A stretch of DNA of 11,225 bases, taken from positions 1-11,225 of the forward strand of contig CAIWLA010000077.1 of assembly GCA_903913345.1 (NCBI GenBank), read 5' to 3'. The DNA is from an uncultured Magnetococcales bacterium (GTDB taxonomy: Bacteria > Pseudomonadota > Magnetococcia > Magnetococcales > Magnetaquicoccaceae). Numbering within the stretch: the stretch's first letter is position 1; each line of letters opens with the position of its first letter. Shown one piece after another: positions 717 through 8,942 of this stretch. Position numbers and translations under genes: made by a program. The notes under the pieces were generated by a model. It saw nothing but the letters and a program-made list of their open reading frames with translations, searched no databases and had not been told where the DNA came from.

Positions 717-1580
717 TCAGTGCCCATCGTTCAGATATTTCATCTGGTCAGAAGAAAAAATCCGGCTGCGCTCCAGGCCACAATAGTCGAATATATGGCT
801 GGCCTGCCGGAAATGGTTCTGTGCCGAATCCGTCTCCCCCTCTCTGTCCGCAATCACCCCCAGCAGCACCAGATCGGCACCGATCCCCAACAGATTTTCC
901 AGAGAACGATCCATCTCCAGAACCTGGACAACCTCCTGCCTGGCAACAGAGAGGGCACCCTGTTTGAAATGAATACGCGCCCGGTTCATCAGAGTGGCGG
1001 CCAGATCCCGTGCAAAACCCCTCTCCCTGGCCTCTCTTTCCGCCTGATCCAGGGCGGCATGGGCCTCAGGATAACGATCCAACCCCCCATAGGCCACGGC
1101 CAAACCGTTCCATATCATGACATGGAAAACCGGTGGAAAGGTTTTTTCCTGATCCAATTGCCGCAACAGAGGTTGATACGCCGCCACCCCGACTTCAAAA
1201 TGGCCCTGTCTGACCTGGAGGGTGGCCAGATTGATCTCCGACTGGAGGCGGGAGACGGCATCATTCAGTGCCTCGAATCCCCTCCTGGCCTGAGTGAATT
1301 GCGACTCGGCCTCCCGGAAATCGCCCCGAACCAGATGGATGGTACCCAGATTCAGTCGCGCAGTGGCAATGCCCGGTTTGTCATCCCGCAATTCCGCCAA
1401 ATGGAGCACTTTGCGATATTCCGCCATGGCCGATTCGGTATGACATTCCTGAAAGAGTTGCGCTGCCTTGTCGCGTGTGGTGTGCCACTTCTCGGCCAGG
1501 GGATTGGATGAAGGGGCCACGGAACAGGCCGTCAGAAAAACCATCACCAACAGGGTGGAACAACAGCGCACATGAGACAT
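717..1580 (-). CDS. TPR-repeat outer-membrane lipoprotein
   Basis: This is a 287-residue predicted lipoprotein. The N-terminus has a short charged region, a hydrophobic stretch and the lipobox LTAC, with Cys19 as the expected lipidated residue. Ser at +2 suggests sorting to the outer membrane. The rest, from about residue 33, is helical with TPR-like units: small residues at A/G positions recur in segments such as ARLNLGTIHLVRGDFREAES and INLATLQVRQGHFEVGVAAY, and in later copies to about residue 265. Such superhelices normally bind other proteins. The gene begins 18 bases after the mlaD-like stop, with AGGAAGAGAG before its ATG, and ends 10 bases before the next gene. I infer a periplasm-facing scaffold of the same transporter, perhaps filling part of the role of the accessory lipoproteins found with other MCE systems. 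That role is not shown by the sequence. Confidence 0.85.
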   Translation of the reverse strand: MSHVRCCSTLLVMVFLTACSVAPSSNPLAEKWHTTRDKAAQLFQECHTESAMAEYRKVLHLAELRDDKPGIATARLNLGTIHLVRGDFREAESQFTQARRGFEALNDAVSRLQSEINLATLQVRQGHFEVGVAAYQPLLRQLDQEKTFPPVFHVMIWNGLAVAYGGLDRYPEAHAALDQAEREARERGFARDLAATLMNRARIHFKQGALSVARQEVVQVLEMDRSLENLLGIGADLVLLGVIADREGETDSAQNHFRQASHIFDYCGLERSRIFSSDQMKYLNDGH

Positions 1581-1598: not shown

Positions 1599-2558
1599 TC
1601 ACGGAGTGATAGGCGTTTGGATCATCGGTAAATCGCGTGGCGTATAGGTCAACCGACCATCCGAGCCATCCTTCGTGTCCAACAAACCAAGCGGCACGAA
1701 ATGGTTGACCCGATGCATCAGGGCTTCTGCTTCCTGCATGACATCACGACCATGGTTGACAAAAACCGGTATTTCAGGGCTGGCCTTGGCCAGTTGTTCC
1801 GACACCTTGGCCAAATCGACAGCCATTTGATTGCCCTTTTCCAGCAGGCTCCGCAATTGTTCGGCCAGGGGTTGGGCCAACTGGACGGTTTTTTGCGCAT
1901 CCGAGAGGGTTTTTTGCCCATCCAGGGCGGTCTTCTCCACCTGATTGGTCATCCTGGACAGATCAACCAGGGCACCATCGGCATGCAATAAACCCTTTTG
2001 AAAATGTCCATCGGGATCCAATAATTGTTCCGTGAAGGTTTTCATATGGGCGAGAATGGTATCCACATGCGTCAGCGTCTCCGGCAATTGGACAAACACA
2101 TCATTGATATCGTTCGTCTTGTCAAACTGGATCAACTGATTGTTTTGCAAAACCGCCGTCTCGGAAGAACCGAGGCTGATATCCAGAGAGGCTCGTCCAA
2201 AATAGGGCTTGATCAGGGTGACAACGGAATCATCCCGGATCTTCTCCATATATTTCTTGAACAAACACAAGGTCACCCGAATCTTGTTATTGTCGGTCAA
2301 TTGCAAATCCGACACATTGCCCACCATGATACCCGCCAAAGTGACCGGCGTATCCTTTTTCAATCCTCCGGCGTGGACAAGCTCCATCTGCAGGAAATAT
2401 TTGGCACCAAACGGATTGGATGTGGCGTTTCCAAGCCAGAGAATACCCAACACCAGGCCCATGCTGACGAAAATAAAAAGGCTGACAATCTGTTTGAACC
2501 GTCGATCCCTTTTAAATCTCTGATCCCTCTCTTTCCGGAATGTGCTGGTTTCCGACAT
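1599..2558 (-). CDS. mlaD: MlaD-like MCE-domain protein (lipid transport substrate-binding subunit)
   Basis: This is an inner-membrane-anchored MCE protein of 319 residues. MCE proteins form hexameric rings in the periplasm that carry phospholipid or other hydrophobic cargo to or from an MlaE-type permease. A very basic N-terminus (about residues 8-23) precedes one membrane helix at about 24-43. The MCE domain covers about 51-134 (GLKKDTPVTLAGIMVGNVSD, then the closing LIKPYFGRASLDISLG). A long helical region at about 155-285, probably coiled-coil, follows, so it is nearer in layout to longer MCE proteins than to E. coli MlaD (about 183 residues). I chose ATG 2558 because GGGGGA lies seven bases upstream. 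A TTG at 2588 overlaps the mlaF stop but has no well-spaced Shine-Dalgarno. It follows the permease and ATPase genes directly. The symbol is given by family, not proven orthology. Confidence 0.88.
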   Translation of the reverse strand: MSETSTFRKERDQRFKRDRRFKQIVSLFIFVSMGLVLGILWLGNATSNPFGAKYFLQMELVHAGGLKKDTPVTLAGIMVGNVSDLQLTDNNKIRVTLCLFKKYMEKIRDDSVVTLIKPYFGRASLDISLGSSETAVLQNNQLIQFDKTNDINDVFVQLPETLTHVDTILAHMKTFTEQLLDPDGHFQKGLLHADGALVDLSRMTNQVEKTALDGQKTLSDAQKTVQLAQPLAEQLRSLLEKGNQMAVDLAKVSEQLAKASPEIPVFVNHGRDVMQEAEALMHRVNHFVPLGLLDTKDGSDGRLTYTPRDLPMIQTPITP

Positions 2559-2584: not shown

Positions 2585-3316
2585 TCAATATCCCTTGACG
2601 ACCATGACGACATCCGGGTTGGGATGATCGTACAGATCGATCAATCGACCAGAGGCCAACACACTTCCGTTCCTGACGATGGCCAGATGGACGCGATCTC
2701 TGGGAAAAAAGCCGATCATGGCCGCTCCGCCACGCACCACCATGGCCAGGGATTCCTCGTTCAACTTTTGCCCCAGGCCGGCCTTCATGAAACGTGTCAG
2801 ATGGAATGCCACGATATCATTGTCCAAAAACAATAATTCCGGATCTTTCAGCACGGCTCGAATGAAGGCCACGCGCAACCGTTGCTCCACCGTCAGGGTG
2901 GCCGCGACCCGGTGCAAGAGATGAACATCTTCCTGATACCGAAGCAGTTGGGAATGGATATAGGGTTCCAACTGCTCTTTCTTGAGCAGGTCATGGTAAC
3001 GCCATGGCAAGGCCAGATTTTCAAAAACGGTCCAGGATGGAATCAATCCATCCCCCTCCAGCAACACACCCATGCGGCGGCGCAAACGGCCCAGTTGCCC
3101 GGCACGGGCTTTGTTCAATGGACAATCAAAAAGGGAGACTGTCCCTGTTTCGGGGGGAATCAAACCCAACATGACCTTGAACAGAATCGTTTTCCCCGAT
3201 CCGCTCGGACCATCAACCAACCATATCTCCCCCTTGGATACCACCCAATCGATCGACTGACCCTCCTGTGCCATGGGCAAGGTGACGGAACGCAGGGTCA
3301 AGAGAGGTTCAGCCAT
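2585..3316 (-). CDS. mlaF: MlaF-like ABC ATPase with degenerate catalytic motifs
   Basis: A 243-residue ABC nucleotide-binding subunit, the normal size for MlaF, placed between permease and MCE genes. Walker A is intact (GPSGSGKT, 36-43). The other motifs are not. The Q-loop position reads LLEGDG with Glu87 where MlaF has Gln. The signature LSGGQ/M is replaced by LTVEQ at 141-145. Walker B reads LLFLDN with Asn166 in place of the catalytic Glu. The following D-loop reads DIVAFHL, and the H-loop region reads MVVRGGA near 192-198 without His. The frame is uninterrupted and the protein full length, so it is not a simple decaying pseudogene. It starts within the end of mlaE (8-base overlap), has no clear Shine-Dalgarno of its own, and is probably coupled. 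It may be a nucleotide-binding but weakly or non-hydrolysing subunit, or may pair with an active ATPase encoded elsewhere. Confidence 0.87.
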   Translation of the reverse strand: MAEPLLTLRSVTLPMAQEGQSIDWVVSKGEIWLVDGPSGSGKTILFKVMLGLIPPETGTVSLFDCPLNKARAGQLGRLRRRMGVLLEGDGLIPSWTVFENLALPWRYHDLLKKEQLEPYIHSQLLRYQEDVHLLHRVAATLTVEQRLRVAFIRAVLKDPELLFLDNDIVAFHLTRFMKAGLGQKLNEESLAMVVRGGAAMIGFFPRDRVHLAIVRNGSVLASGRLIDLYDHPNPDVVMVVKGY

Positions 3317-4076
3317 AACGTACCAAAGAAAACAGGGTGATAATCAGCAAACAACCCAGAAAGGAGCGCACAAAGGCCTTGGGCAGATTCATGGCCGTCT
3401 GCACGGCATCGACGGACAGAAATCCATAGTAACAATGGATCGTACCGATCGCCATCCCAAACCACACCATCATCAAAACCGTGAGACCGGATTCGGATAA
3501 CGCATTCGCGCTGGCATGAATCGCCTGCAACCAGCCGATATCGTCCACAAAAAAAACGATGGAACTGGCTCCAAGAATGGTCCCGACAACCATCCAGATG
3601 GTCAGAAGCAGCATGGAGACGACCACGCCGATCACCCGTGGCTGTACCAGAAGATGCTGCGGATCAATACCTTCCAACAGAAGCACTTCCATCACCTGCT
3701 GGGTCTGCATGCTGGCAATTTCCGAAGTGATGGCCGTTCCAGACCGTCCAATGACCACAATGGCTGTTATGAATGGGACCATCTGATGGAATAATATTTT
3801 TTCCATCAATGAACTGAGCAAATCGATGTCGGTAAAACCCAGTGAAACCAGAGGCAGTACCAGCAATACCCCCAACACCACACCGATAAAGAACATCAAC
3901 TTGAAGCTCTGAAAAGCCGTAAAATAAACCTGCTGAATGGAATATTTGATCAGATAATAAAATCGGCCACTGGAGGTGTGAAACAAACCCGCCATGGCGT
4001 TGCCAGACATGTATAAATAACGGGAAATGCCCTGCAAAAGCCCGTCCTGATGTCTGGAAAACACCCTTGCCATCAT
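3309..4076 (-). CDS. mlaE: MlaE-like ABC transporter permease
   Basis: This is a 255-residue integral membrane protein of the MlaE family, the usual length. In the known complex two MlaE subunits sit in the inner membrane between the MCE ring and the ATPases. An amphipathic N-terminal segment (about 11-35) precedes several hydrophobic helices at roughly 60-80, 97-115, 148-178, 196-220 and 235-252. The family signature is visible: RSGTAITSEIASM at 111-123, then EGIDPQHLLVQPRV at 135-148, matching the coupling-helix region E..G..P...LV.PR. The usual EQ-x-AL just before it reads QQVMEV, so one conserved acidic residue is altered. The ATG at 4076 is the first possible start after an in-frame stop; a second ATG follows at once at 4073. 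It lacks an evident Shine-Dalgarno and overlaps a short upstream reading frame. The next gene overlaps its end by eight bases. Confidence 0.92.
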   Translation of the reverse strand: MMARVFSRHQDGLLQGISRYLYMSGNAMAGLFHTSSGRFYYLIKYSIQQVYFTAFQSFKLMFFIGVVLGVLLVLPLVSLGFTDIDLLSSLMEKILFHQMVPFITAIVVIGRSGTAITSEIASMQTQQVMEVLLLEGIDPQHLLVQPRVIGVVVSMLLLTIWMVVGTILGASSIVFFVDDIGWLQAIHASANALSESGLTVLMMVWFGMAIGTIHCYYGFLSVDAVQTAMNLPKAFVRSFLGCLLIITLFSLVRYG

Positions 4077-4584: not shown

Positions 4585-6969
4585 TCAATGCAACACCTTC
4601 AGCATACTCTGGATCGGTTCATACTCACCCTTGCCAGCCGCTTCACGCCAGACGCGCTCTGCCTTGTCGGGATGGCCCATCCGCACATGGTGAATACCCA
4701 GCCAATAGCGATAGCCGAGTTGTCCCGGGTCCAGATCTGCCGCCTTCTGGAAACCCTCCAGGGACTCTTTCATTTTCCCGGCCGCAGACCACAATCTGCC
4801 AAGCAAATAATGGGCCGGAGCCGTCCGCTCCTCATCGGGGATGCGCATCAACTCCAGATAGGCCCCCGGATGGTCCCCATCCTGAAATTTGCGGACCGCC
4901 GATTGGATCCCTGCCCCGGAGTCCGGGGTCTGGGCCGCAGCGGAGACGGCAGGCAAAACCACCGCCAGGGGCAGAGGCTTGCCGCCCATGGTGGTGATGC
5001 AGGAGCGGTTGACGTGCCAGGCGGCAATACGATCCCACACATGGAAGGGGTTGCAGGTACCCCAACCATTTTCCGACAGATCCAAAGGAATCTTGCCTTC
5101 ATTGATCCCCACCAGGTCGAACGCCCGATTGCCATGGAAAAGATTGCCCTGCACCTTGGGCAAACCGTGGCGAACCACCAGGCCAAAACCCTCATTATGG
5201 CCAATCAGGTTACCCTGAATGACCGGATTGGACTGCACAACCGTCACCCCCGTTCCCCGGTTGTGACTCACTTCACTCTTGCGTAATATCGACTCGGACG
5301 ACTCGATAAAGGTGGCTCCGGTCCCGTTGCGGGTCAGTTTGACCTCCTCCATCAAAATCCGTGAATTATAAACCACCACGCCCAATTCCGCATCCCGAAC
5401 AGAGACATGACGCAGACGGTTTTCCTTGAGTGTCTGGTCCAGGAGAATCCCCTGCCACTCTTTGGATTGGCCGTCTGCCTTGCGCAACAGGACCGGCTCT
5501 TCGGTACTCCCTTCCAGCAGCAGGATCCCCTTGATGGTGATACCCGCACCGCCAGAGAGAACCACCTCCACCCCCGGTTCCGCCTCCAGACGTACCCCCC
5601 GTGGGACAATGATGGATTTTTCGATCACATAGGGAGATCCCCCTTTGCGCCAGTGGGCATCCTCTTCCAGATCCCCGGTCACCGGGGTCGGCCCGGCCTT
5701 CATGGGTACCACCGCCAGGGGGGGAGAGGCCGCACCGACATTGCCGGCACGATCCACCCCCTCCACCTTGTAATAGTAGGTGGTTCCGTTCCGCAATCCG
5801 GAATCCGTGCAGGCGGTATCCTCTACCCGTGCCACCTCCCGGTAGCCGGAGAGGGGACTCTCACTGCGCAGCACCAGATAGGCGACCAGATCCTTGTCCG
5901 GCAGTGCCGTCCAACGGAGGACCGCCTTGCCCTCGGTGCCACGACCGGTCACACCGGTTGGGGCCTTGGGCGGTATGGTATCCAGGGTGATCGGTCCCTG
6001 GAAATCCATCCACTGGGAGACCTGGCCCGATGCATCACCCAAATGGGCCACCAGGGTCTCTCCGTCCGCATTATCCTTGGGGGCCACCTGATACCGTCCC
6101 CGATAGATACCCGGCTGCACCTCCTCCATGGGCAACCCCTTCTTGAAGGTGCCAATATCGAAGGAGGCAAAACGGCCCGCATCCCCTTCCATGGCCACCT
6201 CCAGCCACGCCCCGGCCTTGAGTGACAGATTGGCGGCATTGTGTACCACCGTGCGTATGGAGGGCGGTTTGGTCACATTTTTCGCAGGGGTGTCGGGAAT
6301 GGTGCCCACCAGATCCCTGGCCCATTGATCGGTCACCCGATACAACACGGTCTCCCGCATATTGGCGGCACTGGCAATGATGGTAAACAACAGGTCAATC
6401 GGACTGGTTGGCAAACCACCATTGACACTGACCGCCGTCTGTTTTCCCCGCCAGAGTACCCGACCCTCTGGAATGCCCACCAATTCCAACTCCGCCCCCA
6501 CCGAAACCTTGGAGGCCACCACGGCAAACATCTGGGAAAAGGAGGTCACTTTGCCCCGAATGATGGCATCCACTTTCAGGACGGAGGCCAGCTTGTCCAG
6601 GGGCGCGGAGGCCAGGGCCTTTTCGTCCCCCATGTAGGCCTGGTGGAGACGCTCGTCGGACTGCACCAGTTTCAGAATTTCATAGGAGAGGGAGCTGAAA
6701 TGGTTGAAAAAGGCACGTCGCACAAAATCCGGACCCCCAGGAGAGTCGGTCTCGTTCGTAAAAGGCAGAACAGCCACCCGCCTGGGACGGCTTTCCGGCT
6801 GGTTGCGAAAGGTATCGTCCATCGAGATGTCTGGATCCAGGATACTGAAATTACCCTCCTCGGCCCAGGCGGGCGAGACAATCCAGAACAACCCGTACAA
6901 CAGCACCAGCCATCGACACACCATGAGCCGACATCCCCCCCTCGCAACCCTGGCGATGGACCCATTCAT
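4585..6969 (-). CDS. Exported GNA1162-like / FN3 / beta-helix / TPR multidomain protein
   Basis: A 794-residue exported protein. A hydrophobic signal peptide ends near AWA-EE (about residue 36), suggesting signal peptidase I cleavage and no lipidation. Residues about 60-225 resemble the GNA1162/DUF799 family (RRVAVLPFTNET near 63, LKVDAIIRGKVTSFSQMF, GRVLWRG), which is usually a separate outer-membrane lipoprotein. A beta-rich linker (235-330) leads to a fibronectin-III-like domain at about 331-422 (PPKAPTGV, NGTTYYYKVEGVDRAGN). Residues 440-640 show repeating short beta strands with N-G-x-G turns (LTRNGTGATF, SHNRGTGVTV, GHNEGFGLVV), typical of a right-handed parallel beta-helix. Residues 690-790 are TPR-like helices (AHYLLGRLWSAAGKMKES). 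The ATG at 6969 overlaps the upstream stop as ATGA. A second ATG at 6924 has GAGGGGGGG upstream and gives a more compact signal peptide, so it may be the true start. Confidence 0.85.
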   Translation of the reverse strand: MNGSIARVARGGCRLMVCRWLVLLYGLFWIVSPAWAEEGNFSILDPDISMDDTFRNQPESRPRRVAVLPFTNETDSPGGPDFVRRAFFNHFSSLSYEILKLVQSDERLHQAYMGDEKALASAPLDKLASVLKVDAIIRGKVTSFSQMFAVVASKVSVGAELELVGIPEGRVLWRGKQTAVSVNGGLPTSPIDLLFTIIASAANMRETVLYRVTDQWARDLVGTIPDTPAKNVTKPPSIRTVVHNAANLSLKAGAWLEVAMEGDAGRFASFDIGTFKKGLPMEEVQPGIYRGRYQVAPKDNADGETLVAHLGDASGQVSQWMDFQGPITLDTIPPKAPTGVTGRGTEGKAVLRWTALPDKDLVAYLVLRSESPLSGYREVARVEDTACTDSGLRNGTTYYYKVEGVDRAGNVGAASPPLAVVPMKAGPTPVTGDLEEDAHWRKGGSPYVIEKSIIVPRGVRLEAEPGVEVVLSGGAGITIKGILLLEGSTEEPVLLRKADGQSKEWQGILLDQTLKENRLRHVSVRDAELGVVVYNSRILMEEVKLTRNGTGATFIESSESILRKSEVSHNRGTGVTVVQSNPVIQGNLIGHNEGFGLVVRHGLPKVQGNLFHGNRAFDLVGINEGKIPLDLSENGWGTCNPFHVWDRIAAWHVNRSCITTMGGKPLPLAVVLPAVSAAAQTPDSGAGIQSAVRKFQDGDHPGAYLELMRIPDEERTAPAHYLLGRLWSAAGKMKESLEGFQKAADLDPGQLGYRYWLGIHHVRMGHPDKAERVWREAAGKGEYEPIQSMLKVLH

Positions 6970-8810
6970 CGCCGGAATTTATCCACGACAGACCCCTCTC
7001 CCTGAAACAGATCCACCGTTTCGCGACTCTGGTAGACCGCTTTCTTGCGTTGAACCTCGACCAGGGCATCCCGATACAAAGCGACCTGGGGATCCAGGTG
7101 ACTGGCCTGTTCCAACAGACGTTCCACCCCTTCCAACAATTTTCCCTTGTTCTTGCTGGTGCCCGCTTCCACACTCTGCAACTGGATCTGGGCCTGGTCA
7201 TACCCATTCCTCGCCAACTCCTTGCGTCCAGACAGACAGGGTTCCCCGGCACTCGCCAACTCCAACATGCACCGTTCGAGCAGACGGGAAGCCCCCTCCG
7301 CATCGCCCTTGGCAGCCAGTGCCATGGCCTCTCCCCGCACCTGTCTGGCCTTCTCGAATTGGCCGATTCGCTCTGTCAATATCTTGAAATCATGTAACTC
7401 TTTGACCGATGGAATGTTCTCCCCGACCCAGGTCATGACCAGACCACCCCGTTGATCCTCTCCCTTGTCCATCATGCGACCCGCATATTTGAGAAGCAAT
7501 CCGGTCATCCGACCTTCCACACCCTGTGCCGTGTTGGCATCGCCACCGGTCAGGATATCCAGACTTTTCCGAAAATGGGTCAAGGCATCCGGGACATTGC
7601 CTCCATCCAGCAATGATGCCCCTTGTTCCAGATGGGCCAACCCATATTTTTCCCGGATCAACCCCTTTTGATCGGGGGTCAGATCCTTTTCATTGGCCAA
7701 CATCTCCTCATATTTGGGCAACACCTTGTAATATTGCCCCTCCCGTTCGGTACGGGCCAACTCCTCCAGACGAACGCTTAATTTGGAAGGAAACCAGTGC
7801 CACGGATCCATCCACCCCACGGCCGCCCCCCCCAGCAAAAGGGCAACCAGCAGATAACCGGTCACCGAACTCCTGGCAGCAGCAGGAGCCTCTATCCGCA
7901 CCTCCACCTTGGGCTGAACGGCAGAGGCCACAGACGCCTCCTCCGGGGCATTTTTCAAACGAAAGATCATCTGGGTCTTGCCCAGACGAATGCGATCCTT
8001 GTGCTGAAGGGTCCGCTGGTCGCAGGCTTCACCGTTGACATACAGTTTGCTTTCCGAACCCTTCTGGACCGTAATGAGGTGGGCATCCCCCTCACGGTAG
8101 ATCATCGCATGTTTCCGGGATACCGTGGCATCGTCCAGGACAAAATCGCACTCCAGGGAGCGTCCGATCACCACCGCCTTGCCGCTGAACTCCTGAGAAG
8201 CCCCAACGTGGGCACCGGCCACAATCTCCAGAATAAATTCCGACTGCCCGCCGTCAAACAGGATTGTCCGCCCTTCATGATCCAACTCTGCCGACTGGGC
8301 AGGGGCCTCCGGGATGGATGGAGAGGAATGGAGGGCGGTCACCGGCGGCAGGGGATGCACAGGCATGACAATCGGCGGAGGGGGTGGAGCGGAAGGAGGA
8401 GAAACCGGCGGCGATGGCGGGGCAGTCTGGTCGAGAGGCCGCCCTTCAGGAGTCGGCCTCTTGGGCGGCAGGAGCACCGTCATGGCATCACCTGACTCCC
8501 CCCCCTCTCCCAGCGTCAATACCAGGGAGACATCCCCCAACTGGTAGATTTCACCCGGAACCATCTCCTGGTCTGTCTTGAGGAGATGCCCCCGGAAGAA
8601 AACACCATTATGACTTCCCTCATCGCAAATCCGATACTCCCCCCCCGACCCGATAAAAATACGGGCATGTACACGGGAAAGGGTATTATTGTCAATATGT
8701 ATATCGCATTTCTCACCGCGTCCCAGAATATGGACCGGTTGGTCGAGGAGAAACGTCTGCGACTCCCCGTCTGGCGTACTGATCTCAATTCGTGCATTAT
8801 TGTTTTCCAT
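6966..8810 (-). CDS. Tandem-FHA transmembrane protein with TPR-like C-terminus
   Basis: A 614-residue protein. FHA domain 1 (about 8-100) has GR at 30-31, SRVH at 45-48 and NG at 68-69. A Pro-rich linker at about 115-170 follows. FHA domain 2 (about 192-286) has GR at 216-217, SRKH at 231-234 and a VNG turn at 258-260. These are the residues FHA domains use to bind phosphothreonine peptides, so both look functional. One membrane helix lies at about 316-334 (VTGYLLVALLLGGAAVGWM), placing FHA domains in the cytoplasm and the C-terminal 275 residues in the periplasm. That part is helical with TPR-like units (AHLEQGASLLDGGNVPDALT near 392-411, also near 497-525). ATG 8810 has AGGA nine bases upstream; a TTG at 8819 abuts that site and is unlikely. 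It overlaps the following gene by ATGA. No kinase is visible in the window. Confidence 0.9.
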   Translation of the reverse strand: MENNNARIEISTPDGESQTFLLDQPVHILGRGEKCDIHIDNNTLSRVHARIFIGSGGEYRICDEGSHNGVFFRGHLLKTDQEMVPGEIYQLGDVSLVLTLGEGGESGDAMTVLLPPKRPTPEGRPLDQTAPPSPPVSPPSAPPPPPIVMPVHPLPPVTALHSSPSIPEAPAQSAELDHEGRTILFDGGQSEFILEIVAGAHVGASQEFSGKAVVIGRSLECDFVLDDATVSRKHAMIYREGDAHLITVQKGSESKLYVNGEACDQRTLQHKDRIRLGKTQMIFRLKNAPEEASVASAVQPKVEVRIEAPAAARSSVTGYLLVALLLGGAAVGWMDPWHWFPSKLSVRLEELARTEREGQYYKVLPKYEEMLANEKDLTPDQKGLIREKYGLAHLEQGASLLDGGNVPDALTHFRKSLDILTGGDANTAQGVEGRMTGLLLKYAGRMMDKGEDQRGGLVMTWVGENIPSVKELHDFKILTERIGQFEKARQVRGEAMALAAKGDAEGASRLLERCMLELASAGEPCLSGRKELARNGYDQAQIQLQSVEAGTSKNKGKLLEGVERLLEQASHLDPQVALYRDALVEVQRKKAVYQSRETVDLFQGEGSVVDKFRR

Positions 8811-8942
8811 TGGACACAATCCTGCGAGTCAAAGAAATATCAGGGGATTCATGCCGACCAGTCTGAAAAGCTACCATACCTTTTCTCTCTTTACCACCCG
8901 AAAAAAAGGGACTCGCCATTCTGATCTGCATTTTTCAGTCAC
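8811..8942. other. Intergenic gap before the FHA gene; likely promoter region, none resolved
   Basis: These 132 bases separate the reductase gene from the FHA gene and are the natural place for a promoter of the FHA/beta-helix pair. On the minus strand there is a seven-T run (8901-8907) flanked by CCC and CGGG, and a TATGGT hexamer near 8871-8876. No well-matched -35 box sits at the right distance, so no promoter is called. No convincing terminator for the upstream gene is seen. Confidence 0.3.

What the first reader, a model, noticed from the sequence alone, without database searches (positions are those of the whole stretch)
2585..3316. MlaF-like ATPase that has lost every catalytic motif except Walker A
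Seen directly: Walker A GPSGSGKT is intact, but the Q-loop has Glu87, the signature is LTVEQ, Walker B ends Asp165-Asn166, the D-loop is lost and the H-loop has no His. Known: in ABC ATPases these residues are needed for ATP sandwich formation and hydrolysis. The gene is full length, in frame and embedded in an overlapping operon, which argues for selection rather than decay. Inference: this MCE transporter may work passively, as an ATP-gated bridge, or borrow an active ATPase from another locus.
Basis: partly seen in the sequence, partly recalled or inferred. Interest (0 to 1): 0.75.

Follow-up and report, generated by a model that had tools for sequence, protein, structure and literature searches.

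The report
Conserved dead ATPase in lipid transporter
A lipid-transport operon of magnetic-bacteria relatives keeps a motor subunit that can probably still hold ATP but has lost the parts needed to burn it, and the same losses are preserved in related genomes, which suggests that this transporter no longer works as an ATP-driven pump.

Summary
Window 2585-3316 (minus strand) encodes a full-length ABC nucleotide-binding domain (NBD) with Walker A and the Walker B Asp intact, but Glu at the Q-loop, LTVEQ for LSGGQ, Asn for the catalytic Glu, no D-loop and no His at the H-loop. It is not decay or error: 14 distinct proteins share these losses, and the replacement residues are conserved; dN/dS is 0.15-0.27 in nine pairs. 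Nine of 48 Magnetococcales genomes have it, in the order MlaE-NBD-MlaD-TPR. All nine also hold a second, canonical-type MlaE; its NBD could be read in eight and is canonical. In the window's genome that set is complete, MlaA/E/F/D/C. The predicted fold is an intact NBD, Foldseek's first match being MlaF. Best reading: a cognate, nucleotide-binding, non-hydrolysing subunit of a divergent Mla-like complex that conducts lipid passively or is driven from elsewhere. Borrowing of the canonical MlaF is possible, but the coupling helices differ. Nucleotide binding, loss of hydrolysis and transport are inferred, not measured.

The parts
2585..3316 (-). pseudo-MlaF: 243-aa ABC nucleotide-binding domain with degenerate catalytic motifs
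   Evidence: (PF00005 1.1e-18)
3188..3211 (-). Walker A GPSGSGKT (residues 36-43), intact; G36, G41, K42 invariant in the family
2993..3070 (-). residues 83-108 (GVLLEGDGLIPSWTVFENLALPWRYH): highly conserved stretch, Q-loop and (inferred) permease-facing surface; Glu87 replaces Gln
2882..2896 (-). LTVEQ (141-145) in place of the ABC signature LSGGQ/M
2819..2839 (-). Walker B (160-166), Asp165 kept, catalytic Glu replaced by Asn166; no D-loop follows
2729..2740 (-). VVRG (193-196) at the H-loop; no His; Arg195 invariant
3309..4076 (-). divergent MlaE-type permease, cognate partner; overlaps the NBD gene by 8 nt
   Evidence: PF02405 1.1e-26
3669..3725 (-). presumed coupling helix of the permease (SEIASMQTQQVMEVLLLEG), differing from the canonical AELGIMRIREQIDALEVMG
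   Evidence: placed by position between TM2 and TM3, not by a model
1599..2558 (-). MlaD/MCE protein with N-terminal helix, one MCE domain and a predicted helical C-terminal part
   Evidence: PF02470 7.2e-12; residues 148-319 at pLDDT under 50
717..1580 (-). TPR protein with lipobox-like start, fourth gene of the conserved operon

Best explanation
This is the nucleotide-binding subunit of a divergent second Mla-like (MCE) lipid transporter of Magnetococcales: MlaE-like permease, pseudo-MlaF, MlaD-like MCE protein, TPR lipoprotein. Shown: the subunit keeps the NBD fold (predicted model), the P-loop and the Walker B Asp, and has lost the residues of the hydrolysis and ATP-sandwich machinery in the same way in every orthologue found. 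Inferred: it binds ATP (or another nucleotide) without hydrolysing it, docks on its own permease through a conserved Q-loop/helical-domain surface, and holds the permease in a fixed or nucleotide-sensitive state. Lipid then moves through MlaE and the MlaD-like channel towards or from the outer membrane down its gradient, or is driven by something other than this NBD.
For: 14 distinct proteins share Q-loop Glu/Asp, L[TSP]x[ED][QE], Asn (13) or His (1) for the catalytic Glu and Arg195, with K42 and D165 kept wherever covered (one search has 15 rows, one a fragment of the window's protein). 39 of 243 positions are invariant in 14 rows, among them G36, G41, K42, D165, R195 and much of 83-108. dN/dS 0.145-0.272 in 9 pairs, dS near saturation. 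In 8 genomes the dead NBD evolves faster than its own permease (tree length 3.83 vs 2.24) while the canonical NBD does not (1.57 vs 1.81), as expected if catalysis is no longer constrained. Operon order kept. Model mean pLDDT 92.2, first Foldseek match E. coli MlaF. In E. coli, MlaF K47A and E170Q fail to complement (passages of PMC7367683) and a K47R complex shows no ATPase activity (passages of PMC5016091), so losses of this kind should abolish canonical activity. The signature position 144, which faces the phosphates in ATP-sandwich dimers (recalled), is now acidic.
Against: No binding, hydrolysis or transport measurement. Some NBDs without the catalytic Glu keep slow hydrolysis (recalled). 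In M. tuberculosis, Walker B variants of MceG failed to stabilise Mce1/Mce4 (passages of PMC9947336), so a dead NBD is not automatically a good scaffold. The idea of a long MlaD channel rests on a low-confidence model (mean pLDDT 56.5). Glu at the Q-loop is not special to this family: another Magnetococcales NBD (L089) has it with Walker B Glu, D-loop and His intact.
Confidence: 0.55

Rival explanations
1. Borrowing or mixing: the canonical MlaF of the same cell (contig C575) powers this permease, alone or as a heterodimer with the pseudo-MlaF, as MceG serves several Mce systems.
For: All 9 genomes with the dead NBD hold a second MlaE, with a canonical NBD in 8 of 8 readable loci; MlaA, E, F, D and C at C575 in the window's genome. 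Sharing of one ATPase by Mce1 and Mce4 is reported (PMC9947336, passages incl. abstract).
Against: The presumed coupling helix of the dead-system permease ([AS]EI[AS]SMQ[TNS]QQ) differs from the canonical one (AELGIMRIREQ) in all 9 genomes, and the NBD surface 83-108 is conserved in a different form in each clade. A mixed dimer would still have one site with no catalytic Glu and the other with a degenerate signature.
Confidence: 0.2
2. Regulatory or sensor subunit: the NBD gates an otherwise active or passive conduit according to nucleotide level, or inhibits a second transporter.
For: P-loop Lys and Walker B Asp are conserved although hydrolysis residues are gone, over a tree length of 3.83 substitutions per site.
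Against: Pfam finds no domain other than PF00005 in the protein; of the seven other window genes tested against the eight orthologous loci, only the permease, MCE and TPR genes recur (some loci are short and not every window gene was tested).
Confidence: 0.12
3. Active enzyme with re-tooled catalysis, using the conserved Glu87, Glu144 or Arg195 in place of the canonical residues.
For: The replacement residues are conserved (E/D at 87 in 14 of 14 covering rows, E/D at 144 in 15 of 15, Arg195 in 15 of 15).
Against: Signature, D-loop, catalytic Glu and His are all gone together; none of the 223 other listed NBD hits has this combination.
Confidence: 0.08
4. Recent decay, assembly or binning error.
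For: The window is a contig of a fragmented assembly with 729 contigs.
Against: Same losses in 8 other genomes and 5 further proteins, no internal stops, dN/dS well below 1.
Confidence: 0.02

Closest known systems
MlaF of MlaFEDB (E. coli 6xbd; P. aeruginosa 7cha; A. baumannii 7d06)
   Same: NBD fold; best PDB match by profile (7d06) and by Foldseek (6xbd); gene beside MlaE and MlaD
   Different: Catalytic motifs lost; no C-terminal extension; no MlaC gene or STAS domain found among the window genes scanned; about 22-26% identity in the structural alignments
MceG/Mkl of mycobacterial Mce transporters (8fed)
   Same: NBD of an MCE system; Foldseek match
   Different: MceG is described as an active, shared ATPase; the pseudo-MlaF is encoded with its own permease and lacks hydrolysis residues
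ABC exporters with one degenerate site (such as TM287/288, MRP1, CFTR; PMC7756269, passages)
   Same: Loss of catalytic residues with ATP-binding residues retained
   Different: There the second site is canonical; here the operon encodes a single NBD gene, so a homodimer would have two dead sites
Elongated-MlaD Mla of Veillonella parvula (PMC10665443, abstract and outline)
   Same: MlaEFD core without MlaA/MlaC, elongated MlaD proposed as an envelope-spanning bridge
   Different: The abstract describes no degenerate MlaF; here a TPR lipoprotein is added, and a separate full Mla set exists
PqiABC and LetAB (recalled; YebT/LetB is the best PDB match of the MCE protein)
   Same: MCE tunnels that work without an ABC ATPase (recalled)
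   Different: Their membrane subunits are PqiA/LetA (recalled), not MlaE

Membership tests
ABC nucleotide-binding domain (PF00005) | Profile match above the curated cut-off and NBD fold | tested here: met
Active ABC ATPase | Walker B Glu, signature LSGGQ/M, Q-loop Gln, D-loop, H-loop His | tested here: not met
   All absent in 14 distinct proteins
Active ABC ATPase | ATP hydrolysis | not testable with these tools
   needs biochemistry
MlaF | NCBIfam equivalog NF008809 cut-off 441 bits | tested here: not met
   54.8 bits, and several other NBD families score higher, FtsE best at 75.9; the canonical MlaF of the same genome also misses the cut-off (202.1 bits) but has MlaF as its best family
MlaF | C-terminal extension that forms the dimer handshake | tested here: not met
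   The protein ends where E. coli MlaF residue ~246 of 269 aligns; the extension is required in E. coli
MlaFEDB-type transporter | MlaE permease in the operon | tested here: met
   PF02405 94.2 bits
MlaFEDB-type transporter | MlaD/MCE protein in the operon | tested here: met
   PF02470 45.8 bits
MlaFEDB-type transporter | MlaB (STAS) partner | tested here: inconclusive
   No STAS domain in the nine window ORFs scanned; the rest of the genome was not searched for one
ABC transporter with one degenerate site | A canonical second NBD in the same transporter | tested here: inconclusive
   No second NBD among the window ORFs scanned; a canonical MlaF exists elsewhere in the genome

The most novel reading that the evidence does not exclude
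A symmetric, double-dead ABC transporter under purifying selection: ATP serves as a structural ligand only, and the conserved acidic residue in the former signature (Glu144) and the conserved Arg195 near the former H-loop form protein-protein contacts across the NBD dimer that replace the gamma-phosphate bridge, locking MlaE into a permanently open base for a passive inter-membrane lipid channel.
Probability: 0.25. Interest if true: 0.82.

Novelty: new variant of a known kind. Interest (0 to 1): 0.6.

Why it matters
How ATP hydrolysis is coupled to lipid movement in Mla-type systems, and in which direction lipid goes, is not settled (direction: recalled). A natural MlaE-MlaD system whose own NBD is dead in every relative found is a ready-made test: it separates the conduit from the motor. 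It would also be an unusual ABC transporter in which the only NBD encoded with the permease is dead, rather than one of two sites.

Tried and rejected
Decay or error: rejected by orthologues. G025:C292 (1e-29) looked like a distant orthologue but has canonical motifs, so the count is 9, not 10, of 48. G003:C110 (same genus) looked like a broken copy of the permease; it is a fused NBD-MlaE protein with canonical motifs.

Origin of the family: the permease has relatives at 31-44% identity beyond the named Magnetococcales ones (P0135-P0168, 34 proteins, one of them named, Rhodocyclaceae). I could not find which NBD goes with them: none of 398 phylum genomes has a permease scoring between 150.3 and 331.6 bits with the mixed profile, the plasmid matches are weak, and P0141 found nothing in the 1 genome of family f68 or in 399 of family f23; these empty answers have no positive control. 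One search was only used to choose those two families. A search with the nearest other NBDs led to a different family, whose three named members are Spirochaetia, with no contig length shared with the permease list. So it is open whether the loss of motifs came before or after the split.

The model of the MCE protein is poor from residue 148 on and I draw no length from it. Literature: searches listed no paper that I recognised as reporting an MlaF homologue with all these motifs lost (listings only, seven papers opened in part); one search found none on Magnetaquicoccus with ABC transporters and nothing relevant on Magnetococc- with MCE. The held library misses most subscription papers.

Full report
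What is there. The window is contig C77 (11,225 bp) of an assembly of 3.63 Mb in 729 contigs. Of nine loci found in named genome contigs, eight are Magnetococcales with 40-59% identity; the ninth is a Verrucomicrobia NBD with 25%. The gene is on the minus strand: ATG 3316, stop 2585, 243 aa. It matches PF00005 (68.6 bits) and lies between an MlaE-type permease (3309-4076, PF02405) and an MlaD-type MCE protein (1599-2558, PF02470), followed by a TPR protein (717-1580). The TPR protein has a lipobox-like start in the window and in six of the eight other loci; one other is doubtful and one showed none. The permease and NBD genes overlap by 8 nt.

The losses. Against canonical MlaF of the same genome (contig C575) the protein has Glu87 for the Q-loop Gln, LTVEQ for LSGGM, Asn166 for the catalytic Glu, no D-loop, and VVRG with no His at the H-loop; Walker A and Asp165 are kept.

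The losses are shared. Eight orthologues were read from other genomes of the order. A search of 5.8 billion proteins, in which only the 7,998 candidates sharing most words were scored, listed 14 proteins above a sharp gap (1e-61, then 6e-24); 10 of the 14 carry a taxon name, all Magnetococcales, Magnetococcus or Ca. Magnetaquicoccus. In 15 alignment rows (the fragment included): Q-loop E 13, D 1, one row not covering; signature position 144 E 14, D 1; position 166 N 14, H 1; position 195 R 15; K42 14 of 14 covering; D165 15. Of the 223 other NBD hits listed have Gln at the Q-loop, 222 Gly at 144, 214 Glu at 166 and 213 His at the aligned H-loop column; none has Glu or Asp at the Q-loop, so none has the combination. 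These 223 are listed best hits, not a sample of all NBDs. Outside that set, one Magnetococcales NBD (L089) does have Glu at the Q-loop and LTDGI, with Walker B Glu, D-loop and His intact, so single changes of this kind occur elsewhere.

Distribution. Of 48 Magnetococcales genomes searched, 10 had a match to the family profile at 1e-25; one of them (G025) is a canonical NBD, leaving 9: five of seven in the window's genus (the window included), three of eleven in the next genus, and one in another family. Several of the rest are incomplete assemblies. The order permease-NBD-MCE-TPR is kept in 9 of 9 including the window, one TPR gene being cut by a contig end.

Selection. Pairwise dN/dS of the NBD is 0.145-0.272 in nine pairs; dS is 0.9-2.5, near saturation, so the values are rough. 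The canonical NBD gives 0.054-0.161 in six pairs with finite dS and is lower than the dead NBD in each of those six. Total tree length for eight genomes (G005 left out): dead NBD 3.83, its permease 2.24, its MCE protein 3.99; canonical NBD 1.57, canonical permease 1.81. Some canonical and MCE rows were read from stop to stop and carry a few upstream codons, which inflates their values. The dead NBD is thus constrained but freer than its working paralogue. The dead-system and canonical trees agree on the main groups, consistent with descent plus loss; they are unrooted and small, and differ inside the second genus.

The second set. All 9 carriers hold two MlaE genes. In 8 of 9 the NBD next to the second MlaE could be read, and all 8 have canonical motifs; in G005 the contig ends there. 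In the window's genome the second locus holds MlaA, MlaE, MlaF, MlaD and MlaC; the other eight were not checked for MlaA, MlaD and MlaC. At least in the window's genome the dead system is therefore additional to a full Mla set.

Mechanism. In E. coli, changes of Walker A Lys47 or Walker B Glu170 abolish MlaF function (passages of PMC7367683; PMC5016091, for K47R). With Glu, signature, D-loop and His all lost, hydrolysis by the canonical route is very unlikely (inference). Conservation of the P-loop and Asp165 suggests that nucleotide binding still matters (inference). [quoted passage not shown] By position, I take this to be AELGIMRIREQ[IV]DALEVMG in the canonical permeases, 9 of 9, and [AS]EI[AS]SMQ[TNS]QQ in the dead-system permeases, 9 of 9. 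The NBD stretch 83-108 is conserved in a different form in each clade. This argues that the dead NBD is the cognate partner of its permease, and weakly against routine use of the canonical MlaF. Glu144 and Arg195 lie at positions that in an ATP-sandwich dimer lie near each other across the gamma-phosphate (recalled geometry); a salt bridge there is the boldest reading and is untested.

Literature seen: passages of PMC7367683, PMC5016091, PMC7790496, PMC7756269, PMC9947336; abstract and outline of PMC10665443 and PMC12436622; the rest only as search listings. An elongated MlaD working without MlaA/MlaC as an envelope bridge has been proposed in Veillonella (PMC10665443) and a bridging Mla-Pqi chimera in PMC12436622, so the bridge part of the idea has precedents; I found none for the dead NBD.

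Verdict. A real, conserved pseudo-ATPase variant of a known transporter kind, so far seen only in Magnetococcales among the named hits. What is shown is sequence-level; function is inferred.

Noticed in passing
L088:3270-4811 (-), G003:C110: A 514-aa ORF fuses an ABC NBD with canonical motifs to an MlaE-like permease domain (PF00005 79.5 bits, PF02405 51.2 bits); the same-genus genome G003 has this and no match to the dead-NBD family.
   Followed up: partly
L089:3424-4194 (-), G026:C110: An MlaE-F-D set in another Magnetococcales genome whose NBD has Glu at the Q-loop (FEEGG) and LTDGI for the signature, but keeps Walker B Glu, D-loop and His: a half-way state.
   Followed up: partly
L033:4035-5078 (+), and nine further Magnetococcales loci: The canonical MlaF has an N-terminal extension of about 100 residues with no Pfam match in the one protein scanned.
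   Followed up: no
P0015, P0034, P0255, P0258, P0293, P0347: Six MlaF-like NBDs, from searches whose three named members in that family are Spirochaetia, that have Asp for the catalytic Glu and Gln at the H-loop His.
   Followed up: partly
P0135-P0168: A sister family of MlaE permeases (34 listed, 31-44% identity, one named Rhodocyclaceae); none of the 15 that I aligned has the EQ pair of the canonical coupling helix. Their NBDs are unknown.
   Followed up: partly
window 4585-6969 (-): A 794-aa protein combines a GNA1162-like N-terminal domain, a weak fn3-like stretch, a right-handed beta-helix and a TPR.
   Followed up: no
window 6966-8819 (-): A 617-aa protein with two FHA-type stretches (PF00498, PF16697).
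   Followed up: no
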